Source of the DNA: Deltaproteobacteria bacterium
GTDB taxonomy: Bacteria; Desulfobacterota; BSN033; UBA1163
DNA: 64,000 bases
Direction of reading: 5' to 3'
NCBI GenBank assembly: GCA_016875195.1
Contig: VGRY01000005.1
Coordinates: 1-64,000 of the forward strand
Positions 1 to 15,553 of the stretch are shown one piece after another; position 1 is the first letter of the stretch, and each line of letters starts with the position of its first letter. A program made the translations under genes and the position numbers. A model generated the notes under the pieces. The model ran no database searches, was not told the DNA's origin, and saw only the letters and a program-made list of their open reading frames with translations.

Positions 1-416
1 ATACCTCTCAGTATCTATTGGAACTCATTAAGAAAGGGAAGCTGCAATTTACCAAAGAATACCCGAAGAAAGTGACCTATCATGATCCCTGTTACCTGGG
101 GAGACACAATGGCATCTATGACGAACCTCGGGAGGTCCTAAAGAAGATCCCTGGGTTGGAACTGGTGGAGATGGACGAGTCCCGGGAAGAGAGTCTTTGT
201 TGTGGGATGGGAGGAGGCCGGATTTGGATGGAGACGGCGAAAGATGAAAGATTCTCGGACATCCGGTTGCAGCAGGCGATTGGAGTGGGGGCGGAGGTGT
301 TGGTGACAACCTGTCCGTACTGCATCAGCCAGTTTGAGGACAGTCGGTTGACGTTGAAAGACAGTGAAGCCTTACAGATCAAAGACCTCACTGAAGTGAT
401 ACAGGAGGTTATTTAA
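1..416 (+). CDS. HdrD-like CCG-domain iron-sulfur protein, C-terminal part
   Basis: The reading frame is open from base 3, so the gene enters from the left and only about the last 137 residues are present. The piece has one CCG (cysteine-rich) domain: YHDPCYLGRH, then LCCGMGGG, then TCPYC. In HdrB/HdrD proteins two such domains bind the special [4Fe-4S] clusters that reduce disulfides or similar acceptors. The most likely product is a heterodisulfide-reductase-related (HdrD or HdrBC-fusion type) subunit. It precedes hdrA in the same direction, so it is probably the acceptor-side subunit of the complex encoded downstream. A glycolate-oxidase or lactate-utilisation CCG protein is the alternative; the missing N-terminus would decide. 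Confidence 0.85.
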   Translation, partial: TSQYLLELIKKGKLQFTKEYPKKVTYHDPCYLGRHNGIYDEPREVLKKIPGLELVEMDESREESLCCGMGGGRIWMETAKDERFSDIRLQQAIGVGAEVLVTTCPYCISQFEDSRLTLKDSEALQIKDLTEVIQEVI

Positions 417-500
417 AGGCAAACCCTAAACGTAACCCCTCCCTTCCTCCCCTTAAATTAAGGAGAGGTGAAGTTGGGTGAGTTCCTCCCCTTAGTGGCT

Positions 501-620
501 GTGTCGCAATCCCCTTTTCGTCATTGCGAGCGACCGGAGGGAGCGTGGCAATCTCAGAATTATCAATACGTTATGAGATTGTTTCGGTCGTTTCACTCCC
601 TCGCAATGACATTACGACAC
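501..620. repeat. Palindromic intergenic element, MITE-like
   Basis: Imperfect inverted repeat of about 120 bp. GTGTCG at 501-506 mirrors CGACAC at 615-620. TCATTGCGAG at 521-530 mirrors CTCGCAATGA at 600-609. CAATCTC near 549 mirrors GAGATTG near 576. It has no coding capacity and sits between the HdrD-like gene and hdrA. Elements with this CATTGCGAG...CTCGCAATG layout are dispersed in several unrelated bacterial genomes. It can fold into a long hairpin and could terminate or process the transcript. Confidence 0.75.
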
Positions 621-673
621 AGTCTCTTAAGTAAGGGGAGGTCAGGTGGGGTTAGAGATGAGGTTATAGCGAA

Positions 674-3600
674 GTGGAAAAAGGACAATTTGCAGAACTG
701 TTTGACAAGAGTTCCATAGACAGTCATCGCGGTGATGTGATGGTTGTTGGTGGGGGGATCAGCGGTGTTCAGGCCTCTCTCGACCTCGCTGCATCGGGTT
801 TTAAGGTCTATCTGGTTGACAGGGCACCTGCTATCGGCGGCAAGATGGCCCAGCTGGACAAGACCTTTCCCACCAATGACTGCTCCATCTGAATACTTGC
901 CCCCAAACTGGTCGAGGTCGGCCGGCATCCCAACATTGAGATCCTCACCTATACTGAAGTCGAAAAGGTAGAAGGAGACGCAGGTCAATTCAGCGTAACC
1001 CTGCTCAAGAAGCCCAGATACATCGAAGAGGAAAAGTGTACGGGTTGCGGTGCCTGCGTTGAGTACTGCCCGATCATGGTCCAGGATGAATACAATCAAA
1101 ACCTATCTTTGAATAAGGCCATTCATGTCTATTTCTCTCAGGCAGTTCCGCTGGTCACCTATATCGACTCTAAAAAGTGTTCTTTCCTGAACAACGAGAA
1201 ATGTGCCATCTGTGCGGGGATTTGCAAGAATAACGCTATCGATCTTTACCAGAAACCGGAGAAAATAGAAGTTGAAGTGGGGGCGATCATTCTTGCTCCG
1301 GGTTTTGAAACCTTTGACCCGAAGTTGAAGAGCGACTATGGCTACGGGAAGATGCAGAACGTAGTAACGAGCCTTGACTTCGAAAGAATACTGTGCGCCA
1401 CCGGGCCTTACGAAGGTGAGATCAGGCGCCCTTCTGACAGGAGACATCCACATAAAATAGCTTGGATACAATGTGTCGGCTCGAGACAGGTTATCCCGGG
1501 AGGCAACAGCTACTGTTCGGCCGTATGCTGTACCTATACCCAGAAGCAGGTGATCTTGACAAAAGACCACGATGCTCAGGCCGAGTGTACCATATTCCAT
1601 AACGATGTTCGCTCTTTTGGGAAAGATTTCGAACGATTCTATCAGAGAGCGGAAAATCTTCCCGGGATTCGGTTTATAAGAAGCTTCGTTTCAATCGGGA
1701 GAGAGATCCCTGAAACCAAGAATGTGACGATACGTTACTCTACCTATGAGGATGGGGTCAAGGAGGAGGAATTCGACCTCGTGGTATTATCCGTTGGATT
1801 GAACCCTCCTGATGATGTGAAGGAGATGTCTCAGAAGTTCTCCATTGAACTCACTTCTGAAGGATTCTGTAAAACCAATCCTGTCAATCCTGTCGAGACC
1901 TCCCGGCCTGGTATTTTCGTGAGCGGGGCGTTTCAGGGTCCTATAGACATTCCTGAGTCGATCGTTACAGCCAGTGGGGCGGATGCCCTTTGCAGTCAGC
2001 TGCTTGCCTTCCGCCGAGGGGAGATGGCAGCCGAAAGGGAATATCCAGAGGAAAGGAATGCCGAGGGAGAAGAGCCCAGGGTAGGGGTTTTCGTCTGCCA
2101 CTGCGGGGCGAATATCGGAAGGGTCGTCAATGTTCCTTCGGTAGCCGAATATGCTTCCAGCTTGAAGAATGTGGTCTATGCTCAGGAAACCCTCTTTGCA
2201 TGTGCTACCGACACTGCCAAAAAGATAGGAGAAACCATCCGGGAGAAAGGGTTGAATCGCGTGGTTGTCGCCGCCTGCACTCCGAGGACACATGAACCCT
2301 TATTCCGTGAGACGCTTCGTGAAGGGGGAATCAATCCATACTACTTTGAAATGGCCAATATCCGAGAGCACTGCTCGTGGGTCCATGCGCGAGAGAAAGA
2401 AACTGCCACACAGAAGGCAAAGGATATCGTCCGGATGTCAGTAGCACGGGCGGTTCGTTTAAAACCATTAAAAGAGTTCGATTTGCCGGTTGATAAAAGA
2501 GCGCTGGTGGTTGGCGGAGGTGTGGCTGGATTGACCAGCGGACTGAGCCTTGCCAACCAGGGATTTGAGGTTTTCCTGCTGGAAAAGGATACGGAGCTCG
2601 GGGGAATGGCTCGGAGAATTCATTCCACCCTCGAAGGGCTGGATGTTCAGACCTATCTGCATAATCTTATACGCAAGGTTTATGAGCACCCCTCTGTTCA
2701 CGTATTTACGAATTCTAAGATCACAGGTGTTTCCGGCTATGTGGGAAATTTTGTCACGAGCGTGAAAGTCGGCTGGATGAAGAAGGAGATCCGACACGGA
2801 ATAGCCATCATTGCAACCGGTGCCGAGGAATACAAGCCCACCGAATACCTCTATGGCAAGGATGACAGGGTATTGACCCAGCTCGAACTGGGAAAGCGAA
2901 TTGCCATTGGAGAGGAAAGGCTGAACAATTCTCAGAATGTGGTGATGATTCAATGTGTGGGGTGCAGAAATGAAGAGAGAAATTATTGCAGCCGGGTCTG
3001 CTGCGGCCACTCTATCAAGAACGCATTGAAGCTGAAAGAGTTGAATCCCCGGATGGATATCTACGTCCTCTACCGGGATATGAGAACGTATGGATTCGCA
3101 GAGGATTATTACCGTGAAGCGGCAAACAAGAATGTGAAGTTCATCCGCTATGAACCGGACGATAAGCCCCAGGTGGAGATCATCGAGGAGGGAGGACAGC
3201 GTATTTTGAGAGTTACCGTGACTGATCTTGTTCTCGGTAATAAGCTCGAGATGGATGCAGACCTGCTCGTTTTAGCGGCTGCTGTTGTTCCTTTGGAAAC
3301 GAATGCGGAAATATCCCGATTTTTCAAGGTTCCCTTGAATCCGGATGGTTTCTTTCAGGAGGCTCATGTGAAGCTGAGACCTGTTGACTTTGCTGCCGAG
3401 GGTGTCTTCTTGTGCGGCATGGCTCACTATCCCAAGCATCTATCGGAAGCAGTCAACCAGGCTTACGGGGCTGCGGGACGGGCGGTTACGATTCTTTCAA
3501 AGGATTTCGTCACAGCCTCCGGGGCTGTGAGCGAGGCCAATGAGAAAGACTGCGTATCCTGCGGGGTTTGTATTTCAGTATGCAAGTGCGGTGCGATAGA

Positions 3601-3766
3601 GTTTCGTGACACACCGAAAGGTAAGAAGGCATGGGTGAATTCTGTTCTTTGTGAAGGAGATGGTCTCTGTACTGCAAAGTGTCCCACAGGGGCTATTCAG
3701 TTAAAACACTTTACCGATGAGGATCTCGTCGCCCAAATCGACGCGATAATGGAAGACAGACGATGA
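674..3766 (+). CDS. hdrA: HdrA-like FAD iron-sulfur subunit, selenoprotein (UGA read as Sec73)
   Basis: Electron-bifurcating flavoprotein subunit of a soluble heterodisulfide-reductase-type complex. Two open segments, 674-892 and from 1076 on, lie in the same frame and are separated only by TGA at 890-892. Read through as Sec, residues 70-77 become CSIUILAP, matching the Cys-containing motif of the family. The order is: FAD-binding VVGGGISG (about residue 24), Sec73, [4Fe-4S] site at C122-C132, a second cysteine group at 169-184, a second FAD-binding GGGVAG (about 612), and a C-terminal two-cluster ferredoxin (about 960-1000). The length of about 1030 residues fits the long HdrA type. GTG at 674 is the likely start because a stop lies at 659-661. 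MvhD, NuoE and NuoF genes follow. The Sec reading is inferred from frame, motif and a downstream hairpin; HdrA is a known selenoprotein family. Confidence 0.93.
908..925 (+). promoter_or_regulatory. Candidate bacterial SECIS hairpin in hdrA
   Basis: A 7-bp stem (908-914 with 919-925, including two G-U pairs) closes a four-base loop AGGU at 915-918. The loop begins 22 nt after the UGA. This fits the bacterial SECIS model known from fdhF: a short stem, a small loop with G in its first two bases, and 16-37 nt spacing. It would recruit SelB with Sec-tRNA. Confidence 0.7.
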
Positions 3767-3845
3767 ACAATGGACAATGAACGATGAACAATGAACAAAA
3801 AAGAGGAGATTTCCGTTCAATGTTCATCGTTTAACGTTCATCGTA
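3766..3845. repeat. Word-echo intergenic repeat
   Basis: The gap between hdrA and mvhD is made of near copies of ATGAACAATG and its reverse complement (GTTCATCGT, ACGTTCATCG). The two halves can fold back on each other. No gene is seen. The element belongs to the wider set of repeats that fill gaps in this window. Confidence 0.6.
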
Positions 3846-3875
3846 TTTATTTCCAATCAAGGAGTTGAGATAAAA

Positions 3876-4667
3876 ATGAGCACAGAGCTTAAATTTGAAC
3901 CAAGGATATTAGGGTTTGTGTGCCATTGGTGAGGCTACGGCGCTGCTGACCTGGCTGGAGTTTCCAGACTGCAATATACGGCTGAGATCAGGATGGTGCG
4001 TGTGATGTGCACCGGCAGAATTGACCCGGCCTTTATCATCAGGGCTTTCTCTAATGGAACAGACGGAGTCTTTATCGGCGGCTGTTGGCCGGGCGAATGC
4101 CATTATCCCATGGAAGGAAATTACCATGCATTGAGCATGGTGCTTCTAACTAAAAAATTACTGAAGCATATAGGGGTGAACCCCGAAAGGTTGAGACTGG
4201 AATGGGTATCTGCAGCTCAGGGAATCCGCTTTGCCGAAGTGGTCAATGACGTTGTTAAAAAAGTGAAAGAGCTGGGGCCGATTGGAAAAGGCGAAGGGAT
4301 TGACGAAAATGGATTGAAATTCAAACTCGAAGCCATCCGGAATTTGCTCCCTTATATGAAGCTGGTGGAAAGGGAGAGGCTGAGGGTGCCTGTTGATTCA
4401 GAGGCAGCCTATAGGGAATTTTTCGCAAGTGACGAGGTGGACAGATTATTCCACGAATTGATCGTTGATCCATTGGTCATGAGCCAAATCATGTTGCTCC
4501 TGCGAGAGAAACCCCTTTCTCTCGGGGAAATCTCTGCAACCTTAGGCTTAAACTCGTCTGAAGCCTCAAGATATCTCAATCGTTCATCAAGACAAGGATT
4601 CATCAGGTTTGATGAGAGCCAGAAACGCTTTGTTCCTGTCAGGGGAGAGAAAGCGGGAGCAAGATGA
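3876..4667 (+). CDS. mvhD: MvhD/FlpD-like [2Fe-2S] subunit, selenoprotein (UGA read as Sec19), with C-terminal winged-helix domain
   Basis: MvhD-type proteins pass electrons between a hydrogenase, formate dehydrogenase or NADH module and HdrA. From ATG 3876, just after GGAG, the frame reads FVCHW, TGA at 3930-3932, then GYGAAD. This matches the family CxWC-x-Y-x-GAD motif with Sec in place of the second Cys. The frame continues without a break to 4667. Other cluster ligands are C45 (MCTGR) and C70/C75 (GGCWPGEC). The family core ends near residue 140. About 120 further residues include a helix-turn-helix-like segment (about 208-247: LSLGEISATLGLNSSEASRYL), which is unusual for MvhD. The stop overlaps the NuoE start (ATGA), so the genes are translationally coupled. 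Without readthrough the product would lose its [2Fe-2S] motif. Confidence 0.93.
3955..3967 (+). promoter_or_regulatory. Candidate bacterial SECIS hairpin in mvhD
   Basis: A perfect 5-bp stem CTGGA/TCCAG closes a GTT loop at 3960-3962. The loop begins 27 nt after the UGA and its first base is G, as the bacterial SECIS model requires. Confidence 0.7.
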
Positions 4668-5149
4668 AGGGAAAGAAAAGGGTGAGAAAAGCATCGATGG
4701 GTGAGAGTAAAATCGATGAGATCATCAATAAACATCAAAGCGAAGCCAGCTCACTCATTCAAATATTGCTTGAGATTCAGCGTGAACATCACTGGCTTCC
4801 CAAAGAAGCCCTGGAGAAGGTCAGTGAAAAATTAAACGTACCTTTAAGCCGGATCCAGCATATCGTCACTTTTTATAAAGCCTTCAGCTTGGTTCCGCGA
4901 GGTCGTCATGAAATTCACGTCTGCATGGGGACCGCCTGCCATGTCCGTGGCGCCCCTCGGCTGCTTGACACGGTTCAAGATATGATCGGAATCAAACCGG
5001 GTGAGACGGACAAGGATTTAAAGTTCAGCCTTGAGACCGTGAACTGCCTCGGCTGCTGTGCTTTAGGGCCGGTGATGGAACTGGATGGGAAATATCATGG
5101 AAAGATGGCACCAACTGAGGTAGAAGGCGTCTTAACAAAGTGTGATTAA
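4664..5149 (+). CDS. nuoE: NuoE-like thioredoxin-fold [2Fe-2S] subunit
   Basis: A 161-residue homologue of the 24-kDa subunit of NADH dehydrogenase (NuoE/HndA/HoxE). The four [2Fe-2S] ligands follow the family spacing C-x4-C-x35-C-x3-C: C87, C92, C128 and C132. The protein works with the NuoF-like partner downstream as an NADH-oxidising or NAD-reducing module. The ATG at 4664 overlaps the mvhD stop by 4 bases; an in-frame ATG at 4697 is an alternative start. No other respiratory complex I genes are nearby, so it probably serves the soluble HdrA-MvhD complex and not a membrane complex. Confidence 0.93.
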   Translation: MKGKKRVRKASMGESKIDEIINKHQSEASSLIQILLEIQREHHWLPKEALEKVSEKLNVPLSRIQHIVTFYKAFSLVPRGRHEIHVCMGTACHVRGAPRLLDTVQDMIGIKPGETDKDLKFSLETVNCLGCCALGPVMELDGKYHGKMAPTEVEGVLTKCD

Positions 5150-5204
5150 TGCTTCATGGCCGGGATGGCACTTGGGAACCATGAAAAGATCAGGGGCGTT
5201 TGGA

Positions 5205-5335
5205 AAAGGTTACGGTTACGAAGCCCGTTTCGTTTAAGGTCCAACGGTTATGTGAACTTCTTGAACCGAAGAACGTAACCGAATGACGATACAGGTATCG
5301 TTACCCTAACCGTTACCCAAAACTTATTTATACCT
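5205..5335. repeat. Intergenic inverted/word-echo repeat
   Basis: The 197-bp gap between the nuoE- and nuoF-like genes holds GGTTACGGTTACGAAGCCCG and mirrored pieces (AACGGTTATG, GAACGTAACCG, CGTTACCCTAACCGTTACCC). A related element occurs at 29365-29515 and a weak copy near 62560. No coding sequence is seen. Confidence 0.6.
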
Positions 5336-5346
5336 AAGGTAGGATT

Positions 5347-7272
5347 ATGGCAAGGATCAGCTCACCTGATGCGTTAGAGAAAGTCAGACAGAAGATATTA
5401 TCCCGGAGAGATCCAAACCAGCCTTGTATCTCCATATGCGCTGGCACGGGTTGTCTGGCCTCTGGCGCAAATAATGTGGTTTCTGCCTTTGAAGCCGAGA
5501 TTCAAAGACAGGGTTTAAAGGCGGAGGTCAATACCAAAGGAACCGGATGCCCTGGATTTTGTGAGAGAGGGCCTGTGGTGGTCATCTATCCTGAAGAGAT
5601 ATGCTATCTGCAGGTAAAGCCGGAAGACGTTCATGAGATTGTCTCCGAGACCATCAAGGGGAAAAGGGTGGTGGAGCGTCTGCTCTATGTGGACCCAACC
5701 AATGGCGAAAAGGCAATCCATGAATCGGATATTCCCTTCTATAAGCATCAGGTAAGAAACATCATCGGCAATAACATTAAGATTGATCCTAAGAGCATTG
5801 ATGATTATCTGGCGCTCGGAGGGTATTCTGCTTTAGCCAAAGCCCTTTTGCGGATGACCGGAGAGCAGGTGTTGGAGGAGGTCAAGAAATCAAACCTGAG
5901 AGGAAGGGGAGGTGGCGGTTTTCCCGCAGGGAGAAAGTGGGAGGAATCCCGCCATGCCATTAGCGACATCAAGTACGTGATCGTTAATGCCGATGAGGGC
6001 GACCCAGGCGCATTTATGGATCGAGCAATCCTCGAAGGAAACCCTCACTCCATCCTTGAGGGATTGATCATCGGAGGTTATGCCATCGGATCCCACGAGG
6101 GCTATATTTACGTTCGACAGGAATATCCCTTAGCCGTAGAAAATGTGATCATCGCCATCAAGCAGGCCGAGGCGTATGGTTTGCTTGGAAGAGATATCCT
6201 CGGCTCGGGTTTTGATTTCAGGGTTAAAGTGCACCGAGGAGCTGGCGCTTTCGTTTCTGGAGAGTCGAGTGCATTGATGACGGCATTGGAAGGCAAGGTG
6301 GGAGAGCCCAGGCCGAAGTATATCCATACTGCCATCAAGGGACTTTGGGATCGGCCCAGCGTGTTGAATAATGTTGAGACTTGGGCGAATGTGCCGCTCA
6401 TTATCAATAAAGGCGCTGATTGGTTTGCTCAATTCGGAGAGGAACAGAGCAAGGGCACAAAGATTTTTTCCTTGGTCGGTAAGATCAATAATACCGGCCT
6501 TGTGGAAGTGGTCATGGGCATCACCCTGAGAGATATTATCTATAAGGTGGGCGGTGGAATTCCAGGGGGCAAGAGGTTCAAGGCCGTGCAGACCGGAGGC
6601 CCGTCCGGAGGATGTCTCCCCGAGCAACTGTTGGATATCAAGGTTGATTTTGATGAGCTTACCAAAGCCGGATCGATGATGGGGTCGGGTGGAATGATTG
6701 TCATGGACGAAGACACCTGTATGGTAGATGTCGCCAGGTACTTCCTCGACTTCCTCAGCGATGAATCGTGCGGCAAATGTGTCCCATGCCGTGAAGGCAT
6801 CCGGCAGATGCTTAAGATCCTAACGAATATCAGCAAAGGGAAGGGAAGGGAGGGCGACATCGAGCTTTTGGAAGAGCTATCCGAGACCACCCGGGATGCT
6901 TCGCTCTGCGCTTTGGGCAAGAGCGCCCCCAACCCAGTGATCAGCACGATACGCTATTTCAGGGATGAGTATGAGACTCACATCAAGGGGAAGAGGTGCC
7001 CGGCTTATTTCTGCAAGGAGATAGTCTCGTACTATATTGATCCGGAGAAGTGCCAGGCGTGTATGATGTGCCTTCGGAAATGCCCTGCAGAGGCGATTGA
7101 TGGCGGCAAAAACAAGATTCATATCATTGACCAGGAGAAATGCACCAAGTGTAAAACCTGCTTCGAAGTCTGTCCCACTCGCTTTAATGCAGTGATGCGC
7201 ATTTCCGGAGAGCCTGTTCCGCCTCCGATCCCTGAACAAAGAAGAATGATCACCAGAGAGAGTAGGACTTAA
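5347..7272 (+). CDS. nuoF: NuoF-like NADH-binding FMN iron-sulfur subunit
   Basis: A 641-residue long-form NuoF (HndC/HoxF-like). It has an N-terminal thioredoxin-like [2Fe-2S] domain (CAGTGC near residue 27, TGCPGFC near 60), the FMN/NADH domain with GRGGGGFPAG, an SLBB segment, the [4Fe-4S] motif SCGKCVPCREG, and a C-terminal two-cluster ferredoxin (CQACMMCLRKCP, CTKCKTCFEVCP). This layout belongs to soluble bifurcating hydrogenases and Hdr-linked NADH modules, not to membrane complex I. ATG 5347 follows AAGGTAGG. Likely role: exchange electrons between NAD(P)H and HdrA through MvhD. Confidence 0.95.
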   Translation: MARISSPDALEKVRQKILSRRDPNQPCISICAGTGCLASGANNVVSAFEAEIQRQGLKAEVNTKGTGCPGFCERGPVVVIYPEEICYLQVKPEDVHEIVSETIKGKRVVERLLYVDPTNGEKAIHESDIPFYKHQVRNIIGNNIKIDPKSIDDYLALGGYSALAKALLRMTGEQVLEEVKKSNLRGRGGGGFPAGRKWEESRHAISDIKYVIVNADEGDPGAFMDRAILEGNPHSILEGLIIGGYAIGSHEGYIYVRQEYPLAVENVIIAIKQAEAYGLLGRDILGSGFDFRVKVHRGAGAFVSGESSALMTALEGKVGEPRPKYIHTAIKGLWDRPSVLNNVETWANVPLIINKGADWFAQFGEEQSKGTKIFSLVGKINNTGLVEVVMGITLRDIIYKVGGGIPGGKRFKAVQTGGPSGGCLPEQLLDIKVDFDELTKAGSMMGSGGMIVMDEDTCMVDVARYFLDFLSDESCGKCVPCREGIRQMLKILTNISKGKGREGDIELLEELSETTRDASLCALGKSAPNPVISTIRYFRDEYETHIKGKRCPAYFCKEIVSYYIDPEKCQACMMCLRKCPAEAIDGGKNKIHIIDQEKCTKCKTCFEVCPTRFNAVMRISGEPVPPPIPEQRRMITRESRT

Positions 7273-7302
7273 CATTGCACAAAAGGGAGGAATTACTTCT
7301 CA

Positions 7303-7352
7303 TAACGCCCCCCAACCCCCTCTTAAATTAAGAGGGGGAGAGGGGGAGTTAG
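7303..7352. repeat. C-rich/G-rich inverted repeat
   Basis: CCCCCTCTTAAATTAAGAGGGGGAG forms a hairpin centred on TTAAATTAA and flanked by further C and G runs. Copies of the same design occur near 440, 16535, 42120, 43370, 43420, 46545, 47920 and 48680. Confidence 0.7.
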
Positions 7353-7427
7353 ACAAGGGGAGATTTTCCAATGGTTATGTCAATTCAATTATAAGATTGC
7401 TAATATGTAACAACAGGATAGAACAAA

Positions 7428-8036
7428 ATGAGTGAGATCCTTTTACAGATTGACGGAAAAGAAGTAGAGGCAAAGGAAGGGATGACCATTTTGGAAGCGG
7501 CCCAAAAGGCAGAGATCTCTATCCCTACGCTTTGTCACCTTGAAAAGTTGGAGAATTATGGGGCTTGCCGGATTTGCACCGTAGAGATCGAGAATCGCGG
7601 AAGGACACAACTGGTTGCCGCCTGCCTTTATCCCGTTGAAAGAAATTTGGTGGTCCGGACAAGGTCCGGGAAAATAGATAAGATTCGCAAAGTGCTTTTG
7701 GACCTGATGCTTGCCCATGCTCCAGATTCCCAGGCATTGAAGGACTTGGCTCAACAGTATGGAGCAGATCAATCTCGTTTTGAAAAAGAGCCTTCTTTTT
7801 GCATTCTCTGTGGTCTATGTGTAAGGTACTGTGCCGAGGTCAAGAAGAAGAATGCGGTTGCATTTGTTGACCGAGGCGTCAGACGAGAGATCAGTTTCAT
7901 TCCGGAGATCGCTTCCAAGGAGTGCTGGAACTGCAAGGAATGTTTTCCGCTTTGTCCCACATCTTACTTACAGGCAGCTTACTTTTTAGTCGAAGGGCTT
8001 ACGTTTCCCCCTTCTTCTGCCTCAGTTGACCCCTAA
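7428..8036 (+). CDS. 2Fe-2S/4Fe-4S ferredoxin subunit (NuoG/HndD N-terminal-like)
   Basis: A 202-residue protein with an N-terminal [2Fe-2S] ferredoxin domain (C36, C47, C50, C66) and two [4Fe-4S] motifs (C125-C135: CILCGLCVRYC; C166-C176: CWNCKECFPLC). This equals the electron-wiring N-terminus of NuoG or HndD without a catalytic domain. It closes the hdrA-mvhD-nuoE-nuoF operon and probably carries electrons to or from ferredoxin. Its last residues (about SSASVDP) run into the inverted repeat at 8035-8112, so the native C-terminus may have been altered when the repeat arrived. Confidence 0.88.
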   Translation: MSEILLQIDGKEVEAKEGMTILEAAQKAEISIPTLCHLEKLENYGACRICTVEIENRGRTQLVAACLYPVERNLVVRTRSGKIDKIRKVLLDLMLAHAPDSQALKDLAQQYGADQSRFEKEPSFCILCGLCVRYCAEVKKKNAVAFVDRGVRREISFIPEIASKECWNCKECFPLCPTSYLQAAYFLVEGLTFPPSSASVDP

Positions 8037-8112
8037 AAAGGGGACAGGCTACTTTTTTATTTAAGGTTTTTGCTCCTCCATGAACTAATAAAAAGTAGCC
8101 TGTCCCCTTTTT
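8035..8112. repeat. Perfect 23-bp inverted repeat at convergent gene ends
   Basis: The arms at 8035-8057 and 8090-8112 are exact reverse complements containing GGGGACAGGCTAC, with 32 bp between. Both arms are bordered by A/T runs. The + strand gene stops inside the left arm and the - strand gene stops at the edge of the right arm, so the element can terminate transcription in both directions. Confidence 0.9.
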
Positions 8113-9205
8113 ATCTAATTGTTGATTTCACCATGTCATTGGGGCTGAAGCCGCTGCCCTGTGCTACTTTTCCGATGGCCGCATCCACACCGAAGAGCTC
8201 GGATATTCTGATGATCCCCTTGAGCTGGCCCGTGGTCCATCCGAGAGAGATCTTTGTGGCAGGATGGATGATCTCCTTTCCAGGTTCATATATCTCAAGG
8301 GTGTCTCCGATTCTGAGACCGGAGAGCCTGCCTGCATTGATAAAGAGATTCTCTCCTTCAATCTTTGCAATGGTGGTCGTCCAGTCAAGATAATCAAGCT
8401 GTCTGAAAAAACCGTCCAGGATGTCCTCCAGACCGAAATCAATGGCTTTCATCACGGCCTTGCTCCGGCTATATTCTCCTGTTTCTTTTGTGCCGAAGAT
8501 GGGACTCCTTCCGATAAAGGTTTTGAGCAGATTTCCCGTGGAGGCATCCACGAGGCGGATCTCCACTTTTGCCGTGGCAAAGGAGACCTCTCCCTCCGAT
8601 GTTTCAGAGGCTTTTGAGGAAAGAATGCTTACATCCGTGACTGTTCCCAGGGCAAAAGCCTGGATTCCCAGGGACCGGTGAGCCTGTTTCATCACCGGCA
8701 GTTCAATCAGGCTCTCAAATTTAACTCCTTCACGGTTTAACATCTCTGAGACAACACCTTTTTCCATGATGATCACGCGCTGGGTGGCCTCGAGTTTGTC
8801 GGAAAGCCGTTTTGCCACTGCCTCCCCGATCTTTTCTTCTTGGTAGGTCGTCTTATTTTCGAAGTCTAAAATGGCCACCTTCTTTTTGAAGCCCATCTGG
8901 AGGAAGGGGAGGGGAGCCGCGGCAAATGGCCGGGTAGGCATAGAGGTTACTCGGGTCTCCGGTTCTCGCTTGGGAACAGGTTCAGGAGTAGGTTTTTTAC
9001 CAGGATCAGGGGTTTCCGTTCTGGGAGGGTTGATGCCCTTGGCCGTCTCCATTCCTTCAACCCTCACGGTCTTGCTCTCCGGCAGTTTTTCAGTCTTTTT
9101 TTCGTCTTTCTTTCCGATCAACGGAAGACTTGAGCAGGAGGCGAGAAAAATGATCAATAGGAAGAAAACGGATAGAATAAAAAATATTTTTCTGTATCTT
9201 ATCAT
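8111..9205 (-). CDS. CsgG/FlgT-like outer-membrane lipoprotein
   Basis: A 364-residue exported lipoprotein. The N-terminus has a hydrophobic signal ending in the lipobox FLASC. A Pro/Lys/Glu-rich linker follows to about residue 110. Next is a CsgG-like domain beginning KKVAILDFENKT, and a C-terminal domain resembling FlgT-C (INAGRLSGLRIGDTLEIYEPG). CsgG-family proteins act at the outer membrane in secretion or cell-envelope assembly. The start at 9205 is chosen because GAGGAG lies just upstream and the signal peptide begins there; a longer upstream frame has no signal-peptide logic. It stands alone, so its substrate is unknown. A second protein with a CsgG-like N-terminus is at 13722-15329. 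Confidence 0.8.
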   Translation of the reverse strand: MIRYRKIFFILSVFFLLIIFLASCSSLPLIGKKDEKKTEKLPESKTVRVEGMETAKGINPPRTETPDPGKKPTPEPVPKREPETRVTSMPTRPFAAAPLPFLQMGFKKKVAILDFENKTTYQEEKIGEAVAKRLSDKLEATQRVIIMEKGVVSEMLNREGVKFESLIELPVMKQAHRSLGIQAFALGTVTDVSILSSKASETSEGEVSFATAKVEIRLVDASTGNLLKTFIGRSPIFGTKETGEYSRSKAVMKAIDFGLEDILDGFFRQLDYLDWTTTIAKIEGENLFINAGRLSGLRIGDTLEIYEPGKEIIHPATKISLGWTTGQLKGIIRISELFGVDAAIGKVAQGSGFSPNDMVKSTIR

Positions 9206-9484
9206 AGATACTCCTCGTTTATTGTCATTTTGGATTCTCAAAGTGTCATGCCGAACTCGTTTCGGCATCTCTAAATCTTTAACCCTGATCCTGAAATAAA
9301 TTCAGGATGACATAATAGTAATTAACGCACTACTCCTTCATGTGAGAAGGTCTCCCTTTTCTTCCTCCTCCCCTGGTGGGAGGAGGTGAGGAGGAGGGGG
9401 AATGATGCTGTTATATTACCAATTTTAAAGAAGATGTCAAGGTGAGTTGACTTACCCCTGAATCAGCCATCCATTGGCGACCGA
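9206..9484. other. Gene-free region with two repeats
   Basis: No gene is seen. Bases 9244-9312 form an element bounded by TGTCAT/ATGACA, with inner hairpins TGCCGAA/TTTCGGCA and CCTGAA/TTCAGG. Bases about 9350-9403 hold a C-rich then G-rich inverted repeat (CCTCCTCCCC, GGGAGGAGG). Confidence 0.6.
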
Positions 9485-9619
9485 TTATCGGGTATGAAGA
9501 TTTAAGAATTTGAAAAAGATCTTGATTTCCTTTTCAGTAAGCGAAAGAACATTAGGAAGGCTGGTGAGAAGCTTTTTTATCTTCGACCAATCGAGTTCAA
9601 AGCCGTATCGTTTATATCC
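9485..9619 (-). pseudogene. Open fragment without start, unassigned
   Basis: Directly downstream of the nucleotidyltransferase, the - strand is open for 44 codons (beginning GYKRYGFELDWSKIKKLL) without a start codon. It may be the eroded partner of the nucleotidyltransferase. I do not recognise it. Confidence 0.3.
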
Positions 9620-9956
9620 TTAATCCCTCCTTGAGAGCGCGTTTTTTAATTGGGGACATCGCTTTTTCAAAAGGAATTAAATCAATCTGAAACGGGTGGG
9701 CCAGCGCCGAGACTTCGGCAAGGATTTTAAAATATTTTTTGCTATTAAGACCTTTTACCAGTAGGTCAATATCCGTGCCACACCATAAGAAATCTGGCCT
9801 TGAGACGAGAGACCCAAACAGAATGGTCTCTTTCGCATGATATTTATCTTTTAGGACTTTAGCGACCAACTCTGCCTTCTCGATGGCAGACTTCCTCCTC
9901 TGTCTTTCCTCTTCTTTTCTTTCATCCCATACACTGCGATATTCCATCTTATTCAT
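9612..9956 (-). CDS. MNT-type nucleotidyltransferase domain protein
   Basis: A 114-residue protein with a minimal nucleotidyltransferase domain: the GS motif (ILFGSLVSRPDF), TDIDLLVKG about 10 residues on, and a later acidic position in FQIDLIPF. In this family such proteins often act as the antitoxin of a MNT-HEPN pair by AMPylating the partner. No intact HEPN partner is adjacent. A HepT remnant lies 3 kb away at 12888-13019, and an unidentified fragment follows directly downstream. The N-terminal 35 residues are a charged helix. Confidence 0.75.
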   Translation of the reverse strand: MNKMEYRSVWDERKEEERQRRKSAIEKAELVAKVLKDKYHAKETILFGSLVSRPDFLWCGTDIDLLVKGLNSKKYFKILAEVSALAHPFQIDLIPFEKAMSPIKKRALKEGLRI

Positions 9957-10230
9957 AGTGCCATCATATCATAAATGTAGGCTCTTTCCAAGATATCTAT
10001 AAAATTGAGTTAACGGCGACTCATCCTTTTGTCCGATGTCAACAGGCTGTTGCCCAATAAAAAAGTCCACTTAAATCACCGTTTACCCTTCGACAGGCTC
10101 AGGGCGAACGGTGATTTATTGAAACATTGTAATTTTTTATGGCCATGTCCTGCGAAACGCGGGATCGAAGCACGAAATGAATTTAAGCAATAACTTGTAA
10201 AGGTGTACCCCGGGATTCCATCGAGGGCAT
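9957..10230. other. Gene-free region with a hairpin
   Basis: AAATCACCGTTT at 10073 mirrors GAACGGTGATTT ending at 10117, with CCCTTCGACAGGCTCAGGG in the middle. This is a well-formed stem-loop resembling dispersed CTTCGACAGGCTCAGGG elements. Nothing else was recognised here. Confidence 0.55.
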
Positions 10231-10291
10231 AAAAAAAGGGCGGCTCCCCTTCGATCCCGACTCATCGGGACTCAGGATGAACCGCCCTTTT
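10231..10291 (-). terminator. Rho-independent terminator of the porin gene
   Basis: Read on the - strand, AAAGGGCGGTTC pairs with GAGCCGCCCTTT and is followed by a run of T. It lies 17 bp after the porin stop. The loop holds its own CCCGATGAGTCGGG hairpin. Confidence 0.85.
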
Positions 10292-10307
10292 GGCTACACA
10301 CTTTCGG

Positions 10308-11654
10308 TTAGAAACTGTATAGCAATCTGGAGGTTATGATCCAGGGAGTCTTTGGTTTGACTTCCGCAGCACCGAACTTCAAAGCATCCCCTCTTGTCAT
10401 AAAACCACCACCGATTTGGTATTTGAGTTGTTTGTAGATCTGGAACTCGTTGATCAGATCTAATTCCCAACCGATGGTTTTGTGATCCCTCGGTGAGGTT
10501 CCAACGGTGTTTCCATTTTTGGTGGTATCACCGATATACAGGGCTTGAAGGGTAACTTTATACCATGGTGTGGCCGCGAAACTGCCATAGAGCTTTCCAA
10601 ACCAGACACCACCAAGGGGGCGATCAGCAAATGCCGTACCAGCGACACCACCTCGAATTCCAGTGTTTCCTCGGTTGACCCAGGAGCTGAAGAAGACTAA
10701 GCTCTCTCCAAAAACAGCGGGCGATTCTGATCCAGGAGGTATAAGATAGGCTTCGTTCTTAGTTGCTGTTGTTTTTTTATCTCCTGAACCATATGCTCCA
10801 ACCACTCCAAAATTGAACTTCTCCCATGGGAAGTCGACTTTGAGTCGGGTTGCCCAGCCACGTAATTTAGTATCCGCTCCAACTCTAGGTTCAATTTTTC
10901 CTCTGTTATGGATGAAATCGAAGTTGATGTTCACAGGGCCTACTTTCCCGTCTGCATAGAGTCCGACGTAGGTTGCATTGGCCTGATTTGCCGGAGCCGC
11001 AGCATATGCAACCGGGTAAGTATTCATGTTGAAATGAACCCCATAACCTCCAACAGTTATCTTGTCAATTTTGGCGTTTACATCAAGACCATAGACATCA
11101 ACATCGTCAGAATCAAACGCATCTCCTTCAAGATATTTGAACCAGAAGAGTCTGATCATCGCGGGGTCTACCTTGACGAAGGTCGAAATCCCCGTAGCAT
11201 CCGTAGAAATTAACATGTGGGGCCGGACGGCCAAACCCTGTAAACCCACTCTCATCTGGGTCGGAACTGGGATGAAGGGAAGACCGAAGTCGAAGAATAA
11301 ATGCTTAATTTCGACAGCGACCTGGTCAGCATTCATGAGCCCCAATTGATTTCTGCCACCAGCCGCATCACCCCATTGACTGGAGTCCATTTCAAAGTGA
11401 AATGTTCCGCTTACATTTTTACCATAGATAAAGTCGAATTTGAGGTGGGCACGGGTTTCCATGAAGGCATGTTTTTGATTGTTCAAAGCAATTGTTGCTA
11501 GTGTTGCATTTCTAAAATATTCTGTTTGGGCATCAATAAACCCTGATGCTTTAAACTCAAGTTTTGGTTCTTCTTTTTTGGCCTGGGCAAATGCCATGCT
11601 TCCAAAAGCAAGAACCAGTAATGCGATTAAACTCAGAACAACAAATTTTTTCAT
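10308..11654 (-). CDS. Outer-membrane porin
   Basis: A 448-residue protein with a classic signal peptide (MKKF..., cleavage after AFAQA). The body is rich in alternating amphipathic beta-strand stretches, and the C-terminal residue is Phe (LLYSF), the outer-membrane assembly signal. It probably forms a diffusion channel for small solutes; the substrate cannot be read from sequence. GAGGAGG lies just upstream of ATG 11654. It is a single-gene transcription unit with a good promoter about 220 bp upstream and a strong terminator, as expected for an abundant protein. Confidence 0.85.
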   Translation of the reverse strand: MKKFVVLSLIALLVLAFGSMAFAQAKKEEPKLEFKASGFIDAQTEYFRNATLATIALNNQKHAFMETRAHLKFDFIYGKNVSGTFHFEMDSSQWGDAAGGRNQLGLMNADQVAVEIKHLFFDFGLPFIPVPTQMRVGLQGLAVRPHMLISTDATGISTFVKVDPAMIRLFWFKYLEGDAFDSDDVDVYGLDVNAKIDKITVGGYGVHFNMNTYPVAYAAAPANQANATYVGLYADGKVGPVNINFDFIHNRGKIEPRVGADTKLRGWATRLKVDFPWEKFNFGVVGAYGSGDKKTTATKNEAYLIPPGSESPAVFGESLVFFSSWVNRGNTGIRGGVAGTAFADRPLGGVWFGKLYGSFAATPWYKVTLQALYIGDTTKNGNTVGTSPRDHKTIGWELDLINEFQIYKQLKYQIGGGFMTRGDALKFGAAEVKPKTPWIITSRLLYSF

Positions 11655-12087
11655 CTCTTTTCCTCCTCAATTGATTTGGTGATTCGTGAATTGTGATTTC
11701 TAAATCGTTACTCACTAACAAAATTCACCACCACTTACTTGAACCAACCTCCTTAATTCGTGATTCGTGAATCGTGTTAACCAATTACAATCACTCCTCA
11801 CTAGCTGCCTCATTCACCTCCTTTCCTTGGGATTATGTGAAAACAAATTACAAGCAGATTAAATTTTTCTAATTCTATAGCACTCCCAAAAAGAGATGTC
11901 AAGAGTTTTTTTGAGATTTTTTGAGATTTCCGGGAAATTCCAGAAATCTCTGATTACACCGATTAGAGACCCATTACAACGATTACAAATATGAGGAGAT
12001 TGAGTCGCAATTAGCCGTTTTACTGTTCGAAAGCTTCAGAGCCAACGGCCCTGGAATTGTAGCCCCAATTTCACCTCTGCCATCCCA
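11655..12087. other. Porin leader and repeat region
   Basis: This holds the porin promoter (see 11874-11902) and a leader of about 210 nt. Bases about 11676-11800 are word-echo repeats built from TTCGTGATTCGTGAATCGTG and its complement. Nothing coding was recognised in 11903-12087. Confidence 0.55.
11874..11902 (-). promoter_or_regulatory. Sigma-70-type promoter of the porin
   Basis: Read on the - strand: TTGACA (11902-11897), a 17-bp spacer, then TATAGA (11879-11874). The -35 box is consensus and the spacing optimal. Confidence 0.75.
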
Positions 12088-12330
12088 TCAACTTTGTTGA
12101 TGAAAACTTTCGACGGGTCGCACATGTGCGATCTCGCGACGGCCAATTGGGCGCACTTGCGAAGAAAAGAGTGAAACAACTGCCATTGTTTCACCGTCAA
12201 GAGTCGCAAACTCAACCTCATATCCTTTACTGTTATCGTGCACCAGCACAACTGTTCCAATATTGCCACGCTCAAAGCCATATTCCGGCAAATCGGTAGT
12301 AAGCACTATGGTGTCTAATTCTTTTATCAT
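12088..12330 (-). CDS. DUF4926 protein
   Basis: An 80-residue small protein. The N-terminal 60 residues (MIKELDTIVLTTDLPE..., then GNIGTVVLVHD, YEVEFATLDGET) match my recollection of the DUF4926 family, a small beta-barrel-like domain often found beside DUF6883 or toxin-antitoxin-like genes. The function is unknown. AAAGGAGG sits upstream of the ATG. The last 18 residues (RREIAHVRPVESFHQQS) lie outside the family core and may be readout of neighbouring sequence. Confidence 0.7.
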   Translation of the reverse strand: MIKELDTIVLTTDLPEYGFERGNIGTVVLVHDNSKGYEVEFATLDGETMAVVSLFSSQVRPIGRREIAHVRPVESFHQQS

Positions 12331-12887
12331 CAGGACCTCCTTTGCAATGGGTAAGAAGTTACATAAATGAAAGAAGGTATCCTTCTATTTTCCTCTTTGG
12401 AATAACTGCCCTATCAATATCGGGAAGTTCCAATTCTTATCTCCAAAACTTGCCGAGTTGCAACATTTTAGCCTTATGAAAAAAGGAGTTTCATGAGTTA
12501 ATTGATCAAAAGAATCATGATAGAATCCCCCTTCATCCCCCTTTTCCAAACTGATCTTTACCCATAAGTGGAGTCGCTGGACACAATGGGCACTCCAACA
12601 AATTCCCCATCCCCCTCCTGGCCTCCCCCTTTCCCGCCCCGGTCTATTGAATAGGGCGGGACCGGGGGAAGGTGGAGGAATTACACGATGAGCGGGACAA
12701 CTACCCTCCTCTTCAGGGGGAGGGTTAGGGTGGGGGTGGGGTATCCTAAGCCTCAATCATACTAATTGTACGATCCCTCCTTGTATCCAGCCTACCAACT
12801 TATGGGACATGTTAAGTTTTCCAACGGGGGAAATCCCTATCTCCTCCCTTTGGAAAAGGGAGGTCGGGAGGGATTTTACAAAGATTT
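12331..12887. other. Repeat-rich gap
   Basis: No gene is supported. Bases about 12530-12740 consist of C-rich and G-rich inverted repeats (CCCCCTCCTGGCC, GGGGGAGGGTTAGGGTGGGGG) with CGGTCTATTGAATAGGGCGGGACCGGG in the middle. Bases about 12825-12880 hold AAATCCCTATCTCCTCCC mirrored by GGGAGGTCGGGAGGGATTTT, which abuts the truncated HepT remnant. Confidence 0.6.
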
Positions 12888-13019
12888 TCAAACTAAAGTG
12901 TTAATAGTTTTCTTATCTTGCAAAAATTCATCAAATTCCATTCCGGAGGTAAATTCGTCTATATCCTGGATGGAAATCAAAATGTCCTTTATATAATCTG
13001 AAAAATCTCTATCCTTCAT
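12888..13019 (-). pseudogene. HepT (DUF86) toxin, truncated N-terminal remnant
   Basis: The - strand from ATG 13019 reads MKDRDFSDYIKDILISIQD, then FDEFLQDKKTINTLV, then TGA. This is the start of the HepT/DUF86 HEPN family, which is normally about 110 residues. After the TGA the frame gives KSL then TAA, still similar to the family (RSLEVIGEA), and then runs into the C/G-rich repeat. The gene has therefore decayed or been cut by the repeat. Its usual MNT antitoxin is not adjacent; the nearest is at 9612-9956. Confidence 0.7.
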
Positions 13020-13142
13020 ATTGTTACAACTTCTTATTAATAGGGCGGCTACAGAGGGGCGCCCCTACTATTCGATATTAGGCAGGAGTGACGAATTTGA
13101 AAATATTAGAGGTTCCCTAAATTTAATGCAAACCCAGAAAGA

Positions 13143-13367
13143 TTAAGTTCCCATAAATTCTTCAACCGTCAATTTTGCTTGTTTCAAAATCCCACGCAAA
13201 GTGCCAAGCGCTAATTCTTTATGTAAGGGAACAACACAACCGATTTCGTCATCGATAATCTTTTTTTTCAAAACGACATGACTGCCACGCTGACGAGCTT
13301 GTTTAAAGCCGAGAGTCTCCAGTCTCCGAATTGTTTCTTTTCCGGAGATTCTTTTTAATTTAGACAT
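13143..13367 (-). CDS. hicA: HicA family toxin
   Basis: A 74-residue protein with the HicA double-stranded-RNA-binding-like fold: the ISGKETIRRLETLGFKQ helix, GSHVVLKK with the active-site His, and a C-terminal GTLRGILKQAKLTVEEF. HicA toxins are mRNA interferases neutralised by HicB. It follows hicB and overlaps it by 8 bp, so the two are co-translated. The antitoxin-first order (hicB-hicA) is the less common arrangement. Confidence 0.88.
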   Translation of the reverse strand: MSKLKRISGKETIRRLETLGFKQARQRGSHVVLKKKIIDDEIGCVVPLHKELALGTLRGILKQAKLTVEEFMGT

Positions 13368-13572
13368 TTACAGCCGCCTCAAATGTTGTCATCAGAGGTT
13401 TTGAGACCTCCTGTAATGGAAACTCTTCGAGATATAATTCAGTAGCCTCTCTCAAGTTTGTAATTGCTTCATCAATGGTATATCCCTGACTCACCGTACC
13501 AACCTCCGGGCACTCCGCCACATAAATATCGTCTTCTTTGTGAAGAATGGCTGTAAAAGTTCTTATAGACAT
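13360..13572 (-). CDS. hicB: HicB family antitoxin
   Basis: A 70-residue protein with the HicB core: FTAILHKEDDIYVAECPEVGTVSQG, then TIDEAITNLREATELYLEE. The start at 13572 has GGAGGG just upstream and gives the family N-terminus. A longer upstream frame adds 51 unrelated residues and is rejected. There is no separate DNA-binding domain, so repression of its own promoter would need the core fold. It pairs with hicA directly downstream. Confidence 0.88.
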   Translation of the reverse strand: MSIRTFTAILHKEDDIYVAECPEVGTVSQGYTIDEAITNLREATELYLEEFPLQEVSKPLMTTFEAAVNV

Positions 13573-13721
13573 ATTTCCCTCCATCATTTTATATTTCGGA
13601 TACGTAACACGCCTGTCCCGACAGATCGGGGATTGCGAAACGATTATCACGATCAAACATGTATTGAAAATAAAGGAAGAACCTATGTAATCTTTTTTTG
13701 AAATCGCTGTAATCAATTTTT

Positions 13722-15329: not shown

Positions 15330-15374
15330 AGGTGTTCCTTTCGCGCAAAGGAAATTCTATCTCTCTGATCAAAC

Positions 15375-15403
15375 AACATAGGGATATGATGGTTTATTTT
15401 CAA
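15375..15403 (-). promoter_or_regulatory. Putative promoter for the CsgG/VCBS gene
   Basis: Read on the - strand: TTGAAA, a 17-bp spacer, TATGTT, about 45 bp upstream of ATG 15329. Confidence 0.55.
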
Positions 15404-15427
15404 GGATTTGTCAATTAGCAAAATCGT

Positions 15428-15457
15428 TTGACACCATTCCCATCTCTATGGTATCCA
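15428..15457 (+). promoter_or_regulatory. Putative promoter for the glycan locus
   Basis: TTGACA at 15428, an 18-bp spacer, TATCCA at 15452. It points toward the glycosyltransferase gene at 15554 and diverges from the promoter at 15375-15403. Confidence 0.45.
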
Positions 15458-15553
15458 ATGTTTATTAAGATTACAGTATTGCATATATTTATAAAATAAA
15501 AGTCATGCGTCACGCCTGCCCCGACAAGTCGGGGGACACGGACACGGAGTCAT

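What the first reader, a model, noticed from the sequence alone, without database searches (positions are those of the whole stretch)
674..8036. Double-selenocysteine HdrA-MvhD with NADH module: a probable Sec-dependent bifurcating complex
HdrA (U73) and MvhD (U19) are both interrupted only by in-frame UGA at conserved Cys positions, each with a hairpin at SECIS distance. Both proteins lie on one electron path, and the operon continues with NuoE, NuoF and a ferredoxin-type subunit. There is no hydrogenase or formate dehydrogenase in view. A soluble NADH-HdrA complex with Sec at two successive redox centres is unusual. HdrA and F420-hydrogenase-delta-type selenoproteins are known families, so the novelty is in the combination.
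Basis: partly seen in the sequence, partly recalled or inferred. Interest (0 to 1): 0.78.

Follow-up and report, generated by a model that had tools for sequence, protein, structure and literature searches.

The report
Double-selenocysteine Bam-type aryl-CoA reductase module
This operon encodes the electron-supply half of a tungsten enzyme complex of the kind that anaerobes use to break open aromatic rings; two of its parts carry selenocysteine, and its catalytic part belongs to a little-known branch that may act on something other than benzoate.

Summary
Both UGAs (890-892, 3930-3932) lie where homologues carry Cys, synonymous constraint peaks just behind them, and the genome has selA, selB, selD and tRNA-Sec.

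The interpretation misses the enzyme. The window begins at a contig end inside bamD. In relatives the same genes follow bamB-bamC, an AOR-family tungsten subunit and its ferredoxin; here these lie on contig C3, which ends in the first 37 codons of bamD. The finding is bamD'EFGHI of a Bam-type (class II benzoyl-CoA reductase-like) complex.

Its BamB belongs to a separate clade (17 loci): W-ligand Cys322 and His260 kept, the Glu251 loop lost, positions 255/257 E/D, so benzoyl-CoA as substrate is unproven. Outside the genus 8 of 9 scored operons are Cys-BamE/Sec-BamF, one Cys/Cys; in the genus 6 of 6 are Sec/Sec. The Sec segment of BamE matches that of a paralogous operon although one Sec clade is rejected, suggesting copying between paralogs. 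Sec-BamE alone is known (PMC5109826).

The parts
3..416 (+). bamD, 3' part only (137 C-terminal residues; HdrD/HdrBC-like, CCG domain), cut by the contig end
   Evidence: PF02754 E 5.6e-22; 81% to the C-terminal part of BamD of L034; the 5' 37 codons lie at the start of contig C3
674..3766 (+). bamE: HdrA-like, 1030 aa, two FAD-type Rossmann motifs, selenocysteine at residue 73
   Evidence: PDB 5odc_A HdrA E 9e-201; residue 73 aligns with HdrA Cys197
890..892 (+). UGA = Sec73 of BamE
   Evidence: 22 rows UGA and 13 rows TGC/TGT at this codon in the 35-row set
908..925 (+). SECIS hairpin of bamE (7-bp stem in the minimum-energy fold; apical part holds GGUC), 15 nt behind the UGA
   Evidence: -10.2 kcal/mol, z -2.37; strongest synonymous constraint of the gene
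3876..4667 (+). bamF: MvhD/FlpD-like with C-terminal HTH, 263 aa, selenocysteine at residue 19
   Evidence: PF02662 E 1.3e-49; HTH_5 E 4.2e-5
3930..3932 (+). UGA = Sec19 of BamF
   Evidence: Cys in L037 and L138
3953..3970 (+). SECIS-like hairpin of bamF (core CUGGA-GUU-UCCAG)
   Evidence: weak on energy alone, z -0.56; synonymous constraint peak
4664..5149 (+). bamG: NuoE/HoxE-like [2Fe-2S] thioredoxin-fold subunit
   Evidence: PF01257 E 2.4e-51
5347..7272 (+). bamH: NuoF-like FMN/NAD(H) subunit with N-terminal 2Fe-2S and C-terminal 2x4Fe-4S domains
   Evidence: PF01512 E 3.8e-42, PF10589 E 7.4e-34, Fer4
7428..8036 (+). bamI: NuoG-N/HoxU-like Fe-S subunit
   Evidence: PF13510 E 3.6e-18, Fer4_7; gene order in relatives

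Best explanation
Window 3-8036 is the electron-transfer module bamD'-E-F-G-H-I of a Bam-type (class II benzoyl-CoA-reductase-like, 'class IV WOR') tungsten complex; the catalytic bamB and bamC precede it across an assembly gap (contig C3). Shown here: gene order in relatives, family of each subunit, the UGA/Cys alternation and synonymous constraint behind the UGAs, and a complete Sec machinery. Inferred: Sec73 of BamE and Sec19 of BamF are made by SelB/SECIS read-through and sit at redox centres next to the bifurcating flavin. BamE's flavin splits electrons: a high-potential branch leaves through BamF-BamG-BamH to NAD+ (or runs in reverse), and a low-potential branch goes through BamD/BamC to the W-cofactor of BamB, which reduces an acyl-CoA. 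Because this BamB belongs to a clade that lost the Glu251 loop and changed the 255/257 pair but keeps Cys322 and His260, I expect a related but possibly different aryl- or alicyclic-CoA substrate. BamE's Sec form was probably (re)gained in this genus by copying a segment of about 12 codons with UGA and SECIS from a Sec-type paralog.
For: BamB of L034 against the BamB crystal structure 4z3w: E 2.4e-212 (710 bits, against 196 bits for AOR 1aor); BamC against 4z3w chain E: 2e-64. Own BamB* at C3:978-2930, 91% to it. Order B-C-D-E-F-G-H-I in L031 (bamD split in two frames) and L034 (bamI cut by the contig end) and in 8 BamB* loci of other families. bamD N-terminal 37 codons at the C3 end. Sec machinery. 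UGA/Cys alternation and synonymous peak. BamB* signature in 17 of 17 loci. Sec rows rejected as one clade (lnL difference 101, p-AU 1.8e-55). In codons 73-78 and 79-84 own-genus BamE is 85% and 100% identical (nt) to type-E BamE but 56% and 47% to its sister Cys rows; the largest 12-codon difference in the gene (38.6 points) is at codon 75, the next outside that region 19.6. bamD is homogenised between the two operons within a genome in 2 of 3 genomes compared (97.1% and 99.7% nt; the third 75.2%), against about 75-80% between genomes of the genus.
Against: C3-C5 linkage is inferred from synteny, not from contiguous sequence; C77 begins in the same bamD repeat. The 'invariant' Zn site of BamB is not met. 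No benzoate-pathway gene was found beside the operon; the ring hydrolase and a hydratase-like gene lie 31-32 kb from bamB* on C3, and the hydratase model is reached over its cut-off in 0 of 23 genomes. G008 keeps BamB* and a canonical BamB but no hydrolase over cut-off, and its BamB* operon lacks bamD. L143 (G082) has bamB*-bamC without bamD-I nearby. The bamF hairpin is weak by energy. The local Sec-segment identity coincides with the SECIS itself, so constraint alone could keep it alike; over codons 131-1020 own-genus BamE is, by mean nt identity, no closer to the four sister Cys rows (66.5%, two of them on long branches) than to type E (68.9%), so the sister relation rests on the tree.
Confidence: 0.88

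Rival explanations
1. A stand-alone soluble NADH:HdrA-MvhD bifurcating complex, without BamB.
For: HdrA, MvhD, NuoE, NuoF homologues are adjacent; bamB is not in the window.
Against: The contig starts inside bamD; bamB*-bamC precede the same genes in L031 and L034 and in 9 of 12 BamB* loci of other families (L119 and L139 are cut by contig ends, L143 lacks bamD-I). Own bamB*-bamC and the bamD start lie at the end of C3. The HdrA-like protein scores below the curated cut-offs of the methanogen HdrA models (972.7 of 1100; 752.5 of 1400; 694.5 of 1300).
Confidence: 0.05
2. It is an ordinary benzoyl-CoA reductase: BamB* reduces benzoyl-CoA and the loop loss has no effect on substrate choice.
For: W-ligand Cys322 and His260 kept in 17 of 17 BamB*; ring hydrolase (Oah/BamA) over cut-off on the same contig C3; [quoted passage not shown]
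Against: BamB* is only 51-59% identical to G. metallireducens BamB and lacks the Glu251 loop, with E at 255 and D at 257; a canonical BamB (73% to G. metallireducens) coexists in G004 (L106) and G008 (L111), and G005 has a second match at 55% to BamB*, not examined further.
Confidence: 0.35
3. Both Sec-type BamE clades inherited Sec from one ancestor and the Cys forms are later losses; no copying between paralogs.
For: The excess similarity is confined to the SECIS-bearing codons, which selection on the RNA would preserve.
Against: On the tree two changes suffice, whereas Sec throughout the backbone would need three losses (my count on that tree); all 13 Cys rows share one motif C-I-E-S-P-K-[FL]-[IV]-E-C with a second Cys at 82.
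Confidence: 0.35
4. The UGAs are true stops (pseudogenes or assembly errors).
For: 60-nt folds show no structure signal.
Against: The same UGAs in 6 genomes of the genus and in paralogous operons, with conserved protein downstream; sel genes present.
Confidence: 0.02

Closest known systems
Class II benzoyl-CoA reductase BamBCDEFGHI (Geobacter metallireducens; BamBC crystal structures 4z3w-4z40)
   Same: Same subunit set and gene order; W-ligand Cys322 and His260 kept; BamF with C-terminal HTH (listed as 'hydrogenase, delta subunit; HTH' for G. metallireducens in passages of PMC1924859)
   Different: BamB* is 51-53% identical in this genus; Glu251 loop lost, 255=E, 257=D; BamE carries Sec as well as BamF. 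(That BamF is the Sec subunit in G. metallireducens, with 2 Se per complex, is recalled from Huwiler 2019, not held.)
bam cluster of Desulfococcus multivorans (PMC5109826; passages and section 10 seen)
   Same: BamE is listed there as a selenoprotein; two BamB copies
   Different: BamF is not in that paper's list of five Sec proteins; its BamB1/BamB2 are 64%/79% identical to G. metallireducens BamB, closer than BamB*
Type-E operon of the same genus (C77/L043 and others): bamBCDE, bamF fused to a 4Fe-4S domain, membrane Fe-S protein, EtfB, EtfA
   Same: BamE and BamF Sec-type, same SECIS segment, near-identical bamD in G000 and G005
   Different: Canonical BamB where tested; Etf/membrane output instead of BamGHI
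HdrA-VhuD/MvhD/FrhD selenoprotein operons (passages of PMC13188914; D. autotrophicum HRM2, passages of PMC2702500)
   Same: Sec in HdrA and in MvhD-type proteins, each in a Cys-x-x-Sec motif (table in PMC13188914)
   Different: Those serve Hdr/hydrogenase/formate complexes, not a tungsten aryl-CoA reductase

Membership tests
Class II benzoyl-CoA reductase (Bam complex) | AOR-family BamB with Cys322 as W ligand | tested here: met
   Own C3 BamB* and all 17 BamB* loci have Cys at the aligned column
Class II benzoyl-CoA reductase (Bam complex) | Zn/proton-relay residues Glu251, His255, Glu257, His260, called invariant in PMC12096430 | tested here: not met
   17 of 17 BamB*: loop around 251 lost (the aligner puts a gap, or a Trp, in that column), 255=E, 257=D, His260 kept. 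In 15 canonical rows E251/E257/H260 hold in 15, His255 in only 5
Class II benzoyl-CoA reductase (Bam complex) | Accessory subunits BamC-I in one operon with BamB | tested here: met
   L031 and L034, 8 loci of other families; in this genome split over C3 and C5 at a bamD repeat, so inferred there. G008 lacks bamD in this operon; L143 lacks bamD-I
Class II benzoyl-CoA reductase (Bam complex) | Reduces benzoyl-CoA; about 1 MDa complex with W, Zn, Se, flavins | not testable with these tools
   needs protein
Bacterial selenoprotein | In-frame UGA at a Cys position of homologues | tested here: met
Bacterial selenoprotein | SECIS hairpin behind the UGA | tested here: met
   Conserved hairpin sequence and synonymous peak; by energy alone clear for bamE only
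Bacterial selenoprotein | selA, selB, selD, tRNA-Sec in the genome | tested here: met
Methanogen-type HdrA (NCBIfam HdrA/HdrA2) | Score over the curated cut-off | tested here: not met
   972.7 of 1100, 752.5 of 1400, 694.5 of 1300 bits
Flavin-based electron bifurcation | Coupled endergonic/exergonic electron transfer | not testable with these tools
   inferred from HdrA homology

The most novel reading that the evidence does not exclude
BamB* complexes are a separate class of ATP-independent aryl-CoA (or alicyclic-CoA) reductase with a rebuilt proton relay and a substrate other than benzoyl-CoA; in one genus their bifurcating module became doubly Sec-dependent when a short UGA+SECIS segment, replacing the Cys73/Cys82 pair by Sec73/Val82, was copied by gene conversion from a paralogous operon.
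Probability: 0.35. Interest if true: 0.75.

Novelty: new variant of a known kind. Interest (0 to 1): 0.55.

Why it matters
Class II benzoyl-CoA reductases do one of the lowest-potential reductions in biology, and how bifurcation feeds them is unresolved. A clade with a natural loss in the Zn/proton-relay loop gives a direct test of that relay and of substrate choice. Matched Cys/Cys, Cys/Sec and Sec/Sec versions of the same BamE-BamF pair allow the role of Sec on a bifurcating electron path to be tested. A Sec form that appears to have moved as a short segment between paralogs would show one route by which a Cys protein becomes a selenoprotein.

Tried and rejected
Stand-alone NADH-HdrA complex: rejected once bamB-bamC were found upstream in relatives and on C3. 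Canonical benzoyl-CoA reductase without qualification: not claimed, because the Zn-site test failed. The DMSO-reductase-family neighbour (MoOR, P0010) as the missing formate dehydrogenase: not supported; acetylene hydratase, thiosulfate reductase and formate dehydrogenases match it with similar scores (300, 277, 265-200 bits), and none of the curated cut-offs among the 25 NCBIfam rows shown is reached. SECIS by folding energy alone: 60-nt folds failed; replaced by comparative evidence. Ancestral Sec with losses for BamE: kept as a rival. Literature for a double-Sec BamE/BamF or a second BamB clade: searches led to Sec-BamE for D. multivorans and WOR clades 62/63, nothing on the pair; in most papers I saw listings or passages only, and most subscription papers are not held. 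Rows dropped: hits under 60% (BamE) or 40% (BamF) identity and the duplicate loci L099, L100, L112; the BamF set still includes two MvhD outside the bam operons (L104_5854, L045) among its UGA rows, and of its six Cys rows only L037 is a bam-operon BamF beyond doubt. In some searches, BamE hits under 60% identity or with 600 or fewer aligned positions (so L114 is out). L113 starts after the site and could not be scored. The BamF codon is unread in L102, L104, L038, L092 and L040 (L038 reads TGA). One search scored at most 3 candidates per genome, so its counts are lower bounds. Not run: structure prediction, fold search, RNA covariance models.
Full report
1. Observation. Reading UGA as Sec, 674-3766 gives a 1030-aa HdrA-like protein with its only internal UGA at codon 73 (890-892), and 3876-4667 a 263-aa MvhD-like protein with its only internal UGA at codon 19 (3930-3932). 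NuoE-, NuoF- and NuoG-N/HoxU-like genes follow. The window is contig C5 of the genome from its first base, and the first gene (3-416, CCG domain) is cut by the contig end.

2. Selenocysteine. The genome has tRNA-Sec (79.3 bits, cut-off 47; ARAGORN also calls it), selB (360.9 bits), selA (631.5) and selD (368.2, itself with one in-frame UGA), all over their cut-offs. Relatives have UGA or Cys at both codons. In the 35-row BamE set 22 rows have UGA and 13 Cys at residue 73. Among the 23 UGA rows of BamE, synonymous-codon identity in the 10 codons from codon 76 is 0.954 against a mean of 0.531 (sd 0.073; 1010 windows), and the 11 best windows all start at codons 71-81. Among 21 UGA rows of BamF the 12 best of 182 windows start at codons 18-29. 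The conserved stretches are CUGGUC-GAGGUC-GGCCGG behind the bamE UGA and CUGGA-GUU-UCCAG behind the bamF UGA; Cys rows of the bam operons do not keep them. Energy alone is weaker evidence: short hairpins give z -2.37 (bamE) and -0.56 (bamF), 60-nt folds 0.19 and 0.80.

3. What it is. In L031 and L034 the CCG gene is preceded by a ferredoxin-type gene (about 182 aa) and that by a 652-aa AOR-family gene. The L034 AOR-family protein matches BamB of Geobacter metallireducens (4z3w_A) at E 2.4e-212, 710 bits, against 196 bits for aldehyde ferredoxin oxidoreductase; the ferredoxin matches BamC (4z3w_E) at 2e-64. The order is then bamB-C-D-E-F-G-H-I; in L031 bamD is split in two frames, in L034 bamI is cut by the contig end. 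BamF of G. metallireducens is listed in PMC1924859 (passages) as 'hydrogenase, delta subunit; HTH', and the window's MvhD-like protein has a C-terminal HTH. In the own genome bamB (91% to L034) and bamC lie at the end of C3, which runs into the first 37 codons of bamD; C5 and C77 both start late in bamD with 127 identical bases. So bamD looks like a two-copy repeat at which the assembly broke. By synteny with L031, L034 and L148+L099 I link C3 to C5, by inference only.

4. A divergent BamB. In a 36-row alignment (one row is a distant AOR) 17 BamB* loci (own genus and other families) share DWMA[VT]DEDD[SG]FHH[ND]NF and YKC[YF]GKDTY. They keep Cys322 and His260 of the G. metallireducens enzyme; the loop around Glu251 is missing (the column holds a gap, a Trp) and positions 255/257 are E/D. 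PMC12096430 (passages) calls Cys322 the W ligand and Glu251, His255, Glu257, His260 invariant Zn ligands and part of the proton path. In the 15 canonical rows, G. metallireducens included, E251, E257 and H260 are in all and His255 in 5. Three further rows (L145-L147, 58-59% to own) form another group. In a sample of 395 genomes of the phylum, 99 have a BamB-type match at E <= 1e-180, and 15 of these have one at 63% or more to the own BamB* (lower bounds). G004 and G008 hold both BamB* and a canonical BamB; G005 has a second match at 55%, not examined. For the own genome no canonical BamB was found (next best matches 43% or less); the part upstream of C77 is missing. By the rule on failed defining features I do not call this a benzoyl-CoA reductase; I call it a Bam-type complex with an unproven substrate.

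5. Neighbours. A DMSO-reductase-family protein (MoOR) lies near bamB* operons in L064, L031, L101, L148, L134, L135 and L137 (7 of 15 BamB* loci clustered; a partial match also in L144). An IclR-like regulator (by eye; 12 kb off in L064) recurs in 8 of 15 and an AMP-ligase-like gene (by eye) in 3 of 15. MoOR fits acetylene hydratase, thiosulfate reductase and formate dehydrogenases with similar scores. On C3 the ring hydrolase Oah/BamA (542.9 bits, cut-off 464.45) and a hydratase-like gene (168 bits, under its cut-off of 292.5) lie 31-32 kb from bamB*. Oah is over cut-off in 16 of 23 genomes of the class, not in G008; the hydratase model in 0 of 23.

6. Second operon. C77 carries bamD'-E(Sec)-F(Sec, fused to a 4Fe-4S domain)-membrane Fe-S protein-EtfB-EtfA. 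A similar arrangement with a bamB upstream is seen in L102, L103, L105, L106, L107, L109, L110 and L111; the bamB is canonical in the 7 of these 8 that I aligned (all but L103). So genomes of this genus have two Bam-type systems, one with a NADH-type module (BamGHI) and one with an Etf/membrane module. The two outputs proposed for one complex in PMC12096430 (NAD+ and menaquinone) are here on separate operons; BamGHI might also serve both, which I could not test.

7. How Sec came to BamE. All 22 Sec rows read U-I-L-[AS]-P-K-L-V-E-V at 73-82; all 13 Cys rows read C-I-E-S-P-K-[FL]-[IV]-E-C, with a second Cys at 82. Outside Bam, Cys with Val does occur: HdrA of 5odc reads C-I-L-A-P-K-M-V-D-V there. 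BamB* operons outside the genus: 8 of 9 scored Cys-BamE/Sec-BamF, 1 Cys/Cys. In the own genus 6 of 6 are Sec/Sec. A tree without codons 55-110 needs 2 changes and rejects all Sec rows as one clade (lnL difference 101, p-AU 1.8e-55; quick tree, after an earlier tree had been seen). Nucleotide identity of own-genus BamE to type-E BamE is 85% in codons 73-78 and 100% in 79-84, against 56% and 47% to the four sister Cys rows; in the other 6-codon bins shown the two differ less or the other way, and over codons 131-1020 they are 68.9% and 66.5%, so the sister relation to Cys rows rests on the tree. bamD is 97.1% (G000) and 99.7% (G005) identical between the two operons of one genome but 75.2% in G004, and about 75-80% between genomes of the genus, so exchange between the operons very probably occurs. 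Constraint on the SECIS could also keep these codons alike, hence only a moderate confidence in copying.

8. Mechanism. BamE residue 73 aligns with HdrA Cys197 of 5odc, and BamF residue 19 with MvhD residue 16 (counted on the printed alignments). [quoted passage not shown] That the Sec residues are cluster ligands I did not verify. The electron path given in Best explanation is inferred.

9. Known and new. Known: Bam complexes; Sec-BamE (D. multivorans, PMC5109826); operons with several selenoproteins including HdrA and MvhD/FrhD (PMC13188914; PMC2702500); WOR clades 62 and 63 for such complexes (PMC13328260), one of which may be BamB*. Not seen in what searches and the passages read showed me: a Sec/Sec BamE-BamF pair, the Sec73-Val82 / Cys73-Cys82 alternation, or the BamB* loop loss.

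Noticed in passing
L043 (C77) 6684-15771: Second Bam-type operon of the same genome: bamD', Sec-bamE, Sec-bamF fused to a 4Fe-4S domain, a membrane HdrDE-like Fe-S protein, EtfB, EtfA.
   Followed up: partly
window 1-416 and L043 15358-15773: First 127 bases identical, 97% over 415 nt: bamD is homogenised between two operons of the genome; same in G005 (99.7%), not in G004 (75.2%).
   Followed up: yes
L064 (C3) 3603-5672: DMSO-reductase-family protein without a clear subfamily, recurrently near BamB* operons, next to a TetR gene in four own-genus loci.
   Followed up: partly
L044 (C42) 4196-4579 and L104 5854-6240: MvhD paralogs with a stop codon at a second conserved Cys (BamF position 70): TGA in C42; in L104 a stop of unread type there besides UGA at position 19.
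   Followed up: no
G000:C22:28679-30613 and C79:3123-4043: Further frames of the genome with one internal UGA: an HdrA-type match (position not checked) and SelD.
   Followed up: no
window 633-653, 42111-42131, 43418-43438, 46544-46590, 48674-48694: Dispersed 21-bp repeat AAGGGGAGGTTAGGTGGGGTT, 6 matches with up to 3 mismatches against 0 expected; related repeats at the C3 end.
   Followed up: partly
L101 (G008): The BamB* operon of G008 has no bamD between bamC and bamE, while the type-E operon of the same genome (L111) has one.
   Followed up: no
window 37139-64000: Catabolic region: AMP-ligases, zinc alcohol dehydrogenase, thiolase; by eye also TRAP-type and ABC-type uptake genes and a 3-hydroxyacyl-CoA dehydrogenase.
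   Followed up: partly
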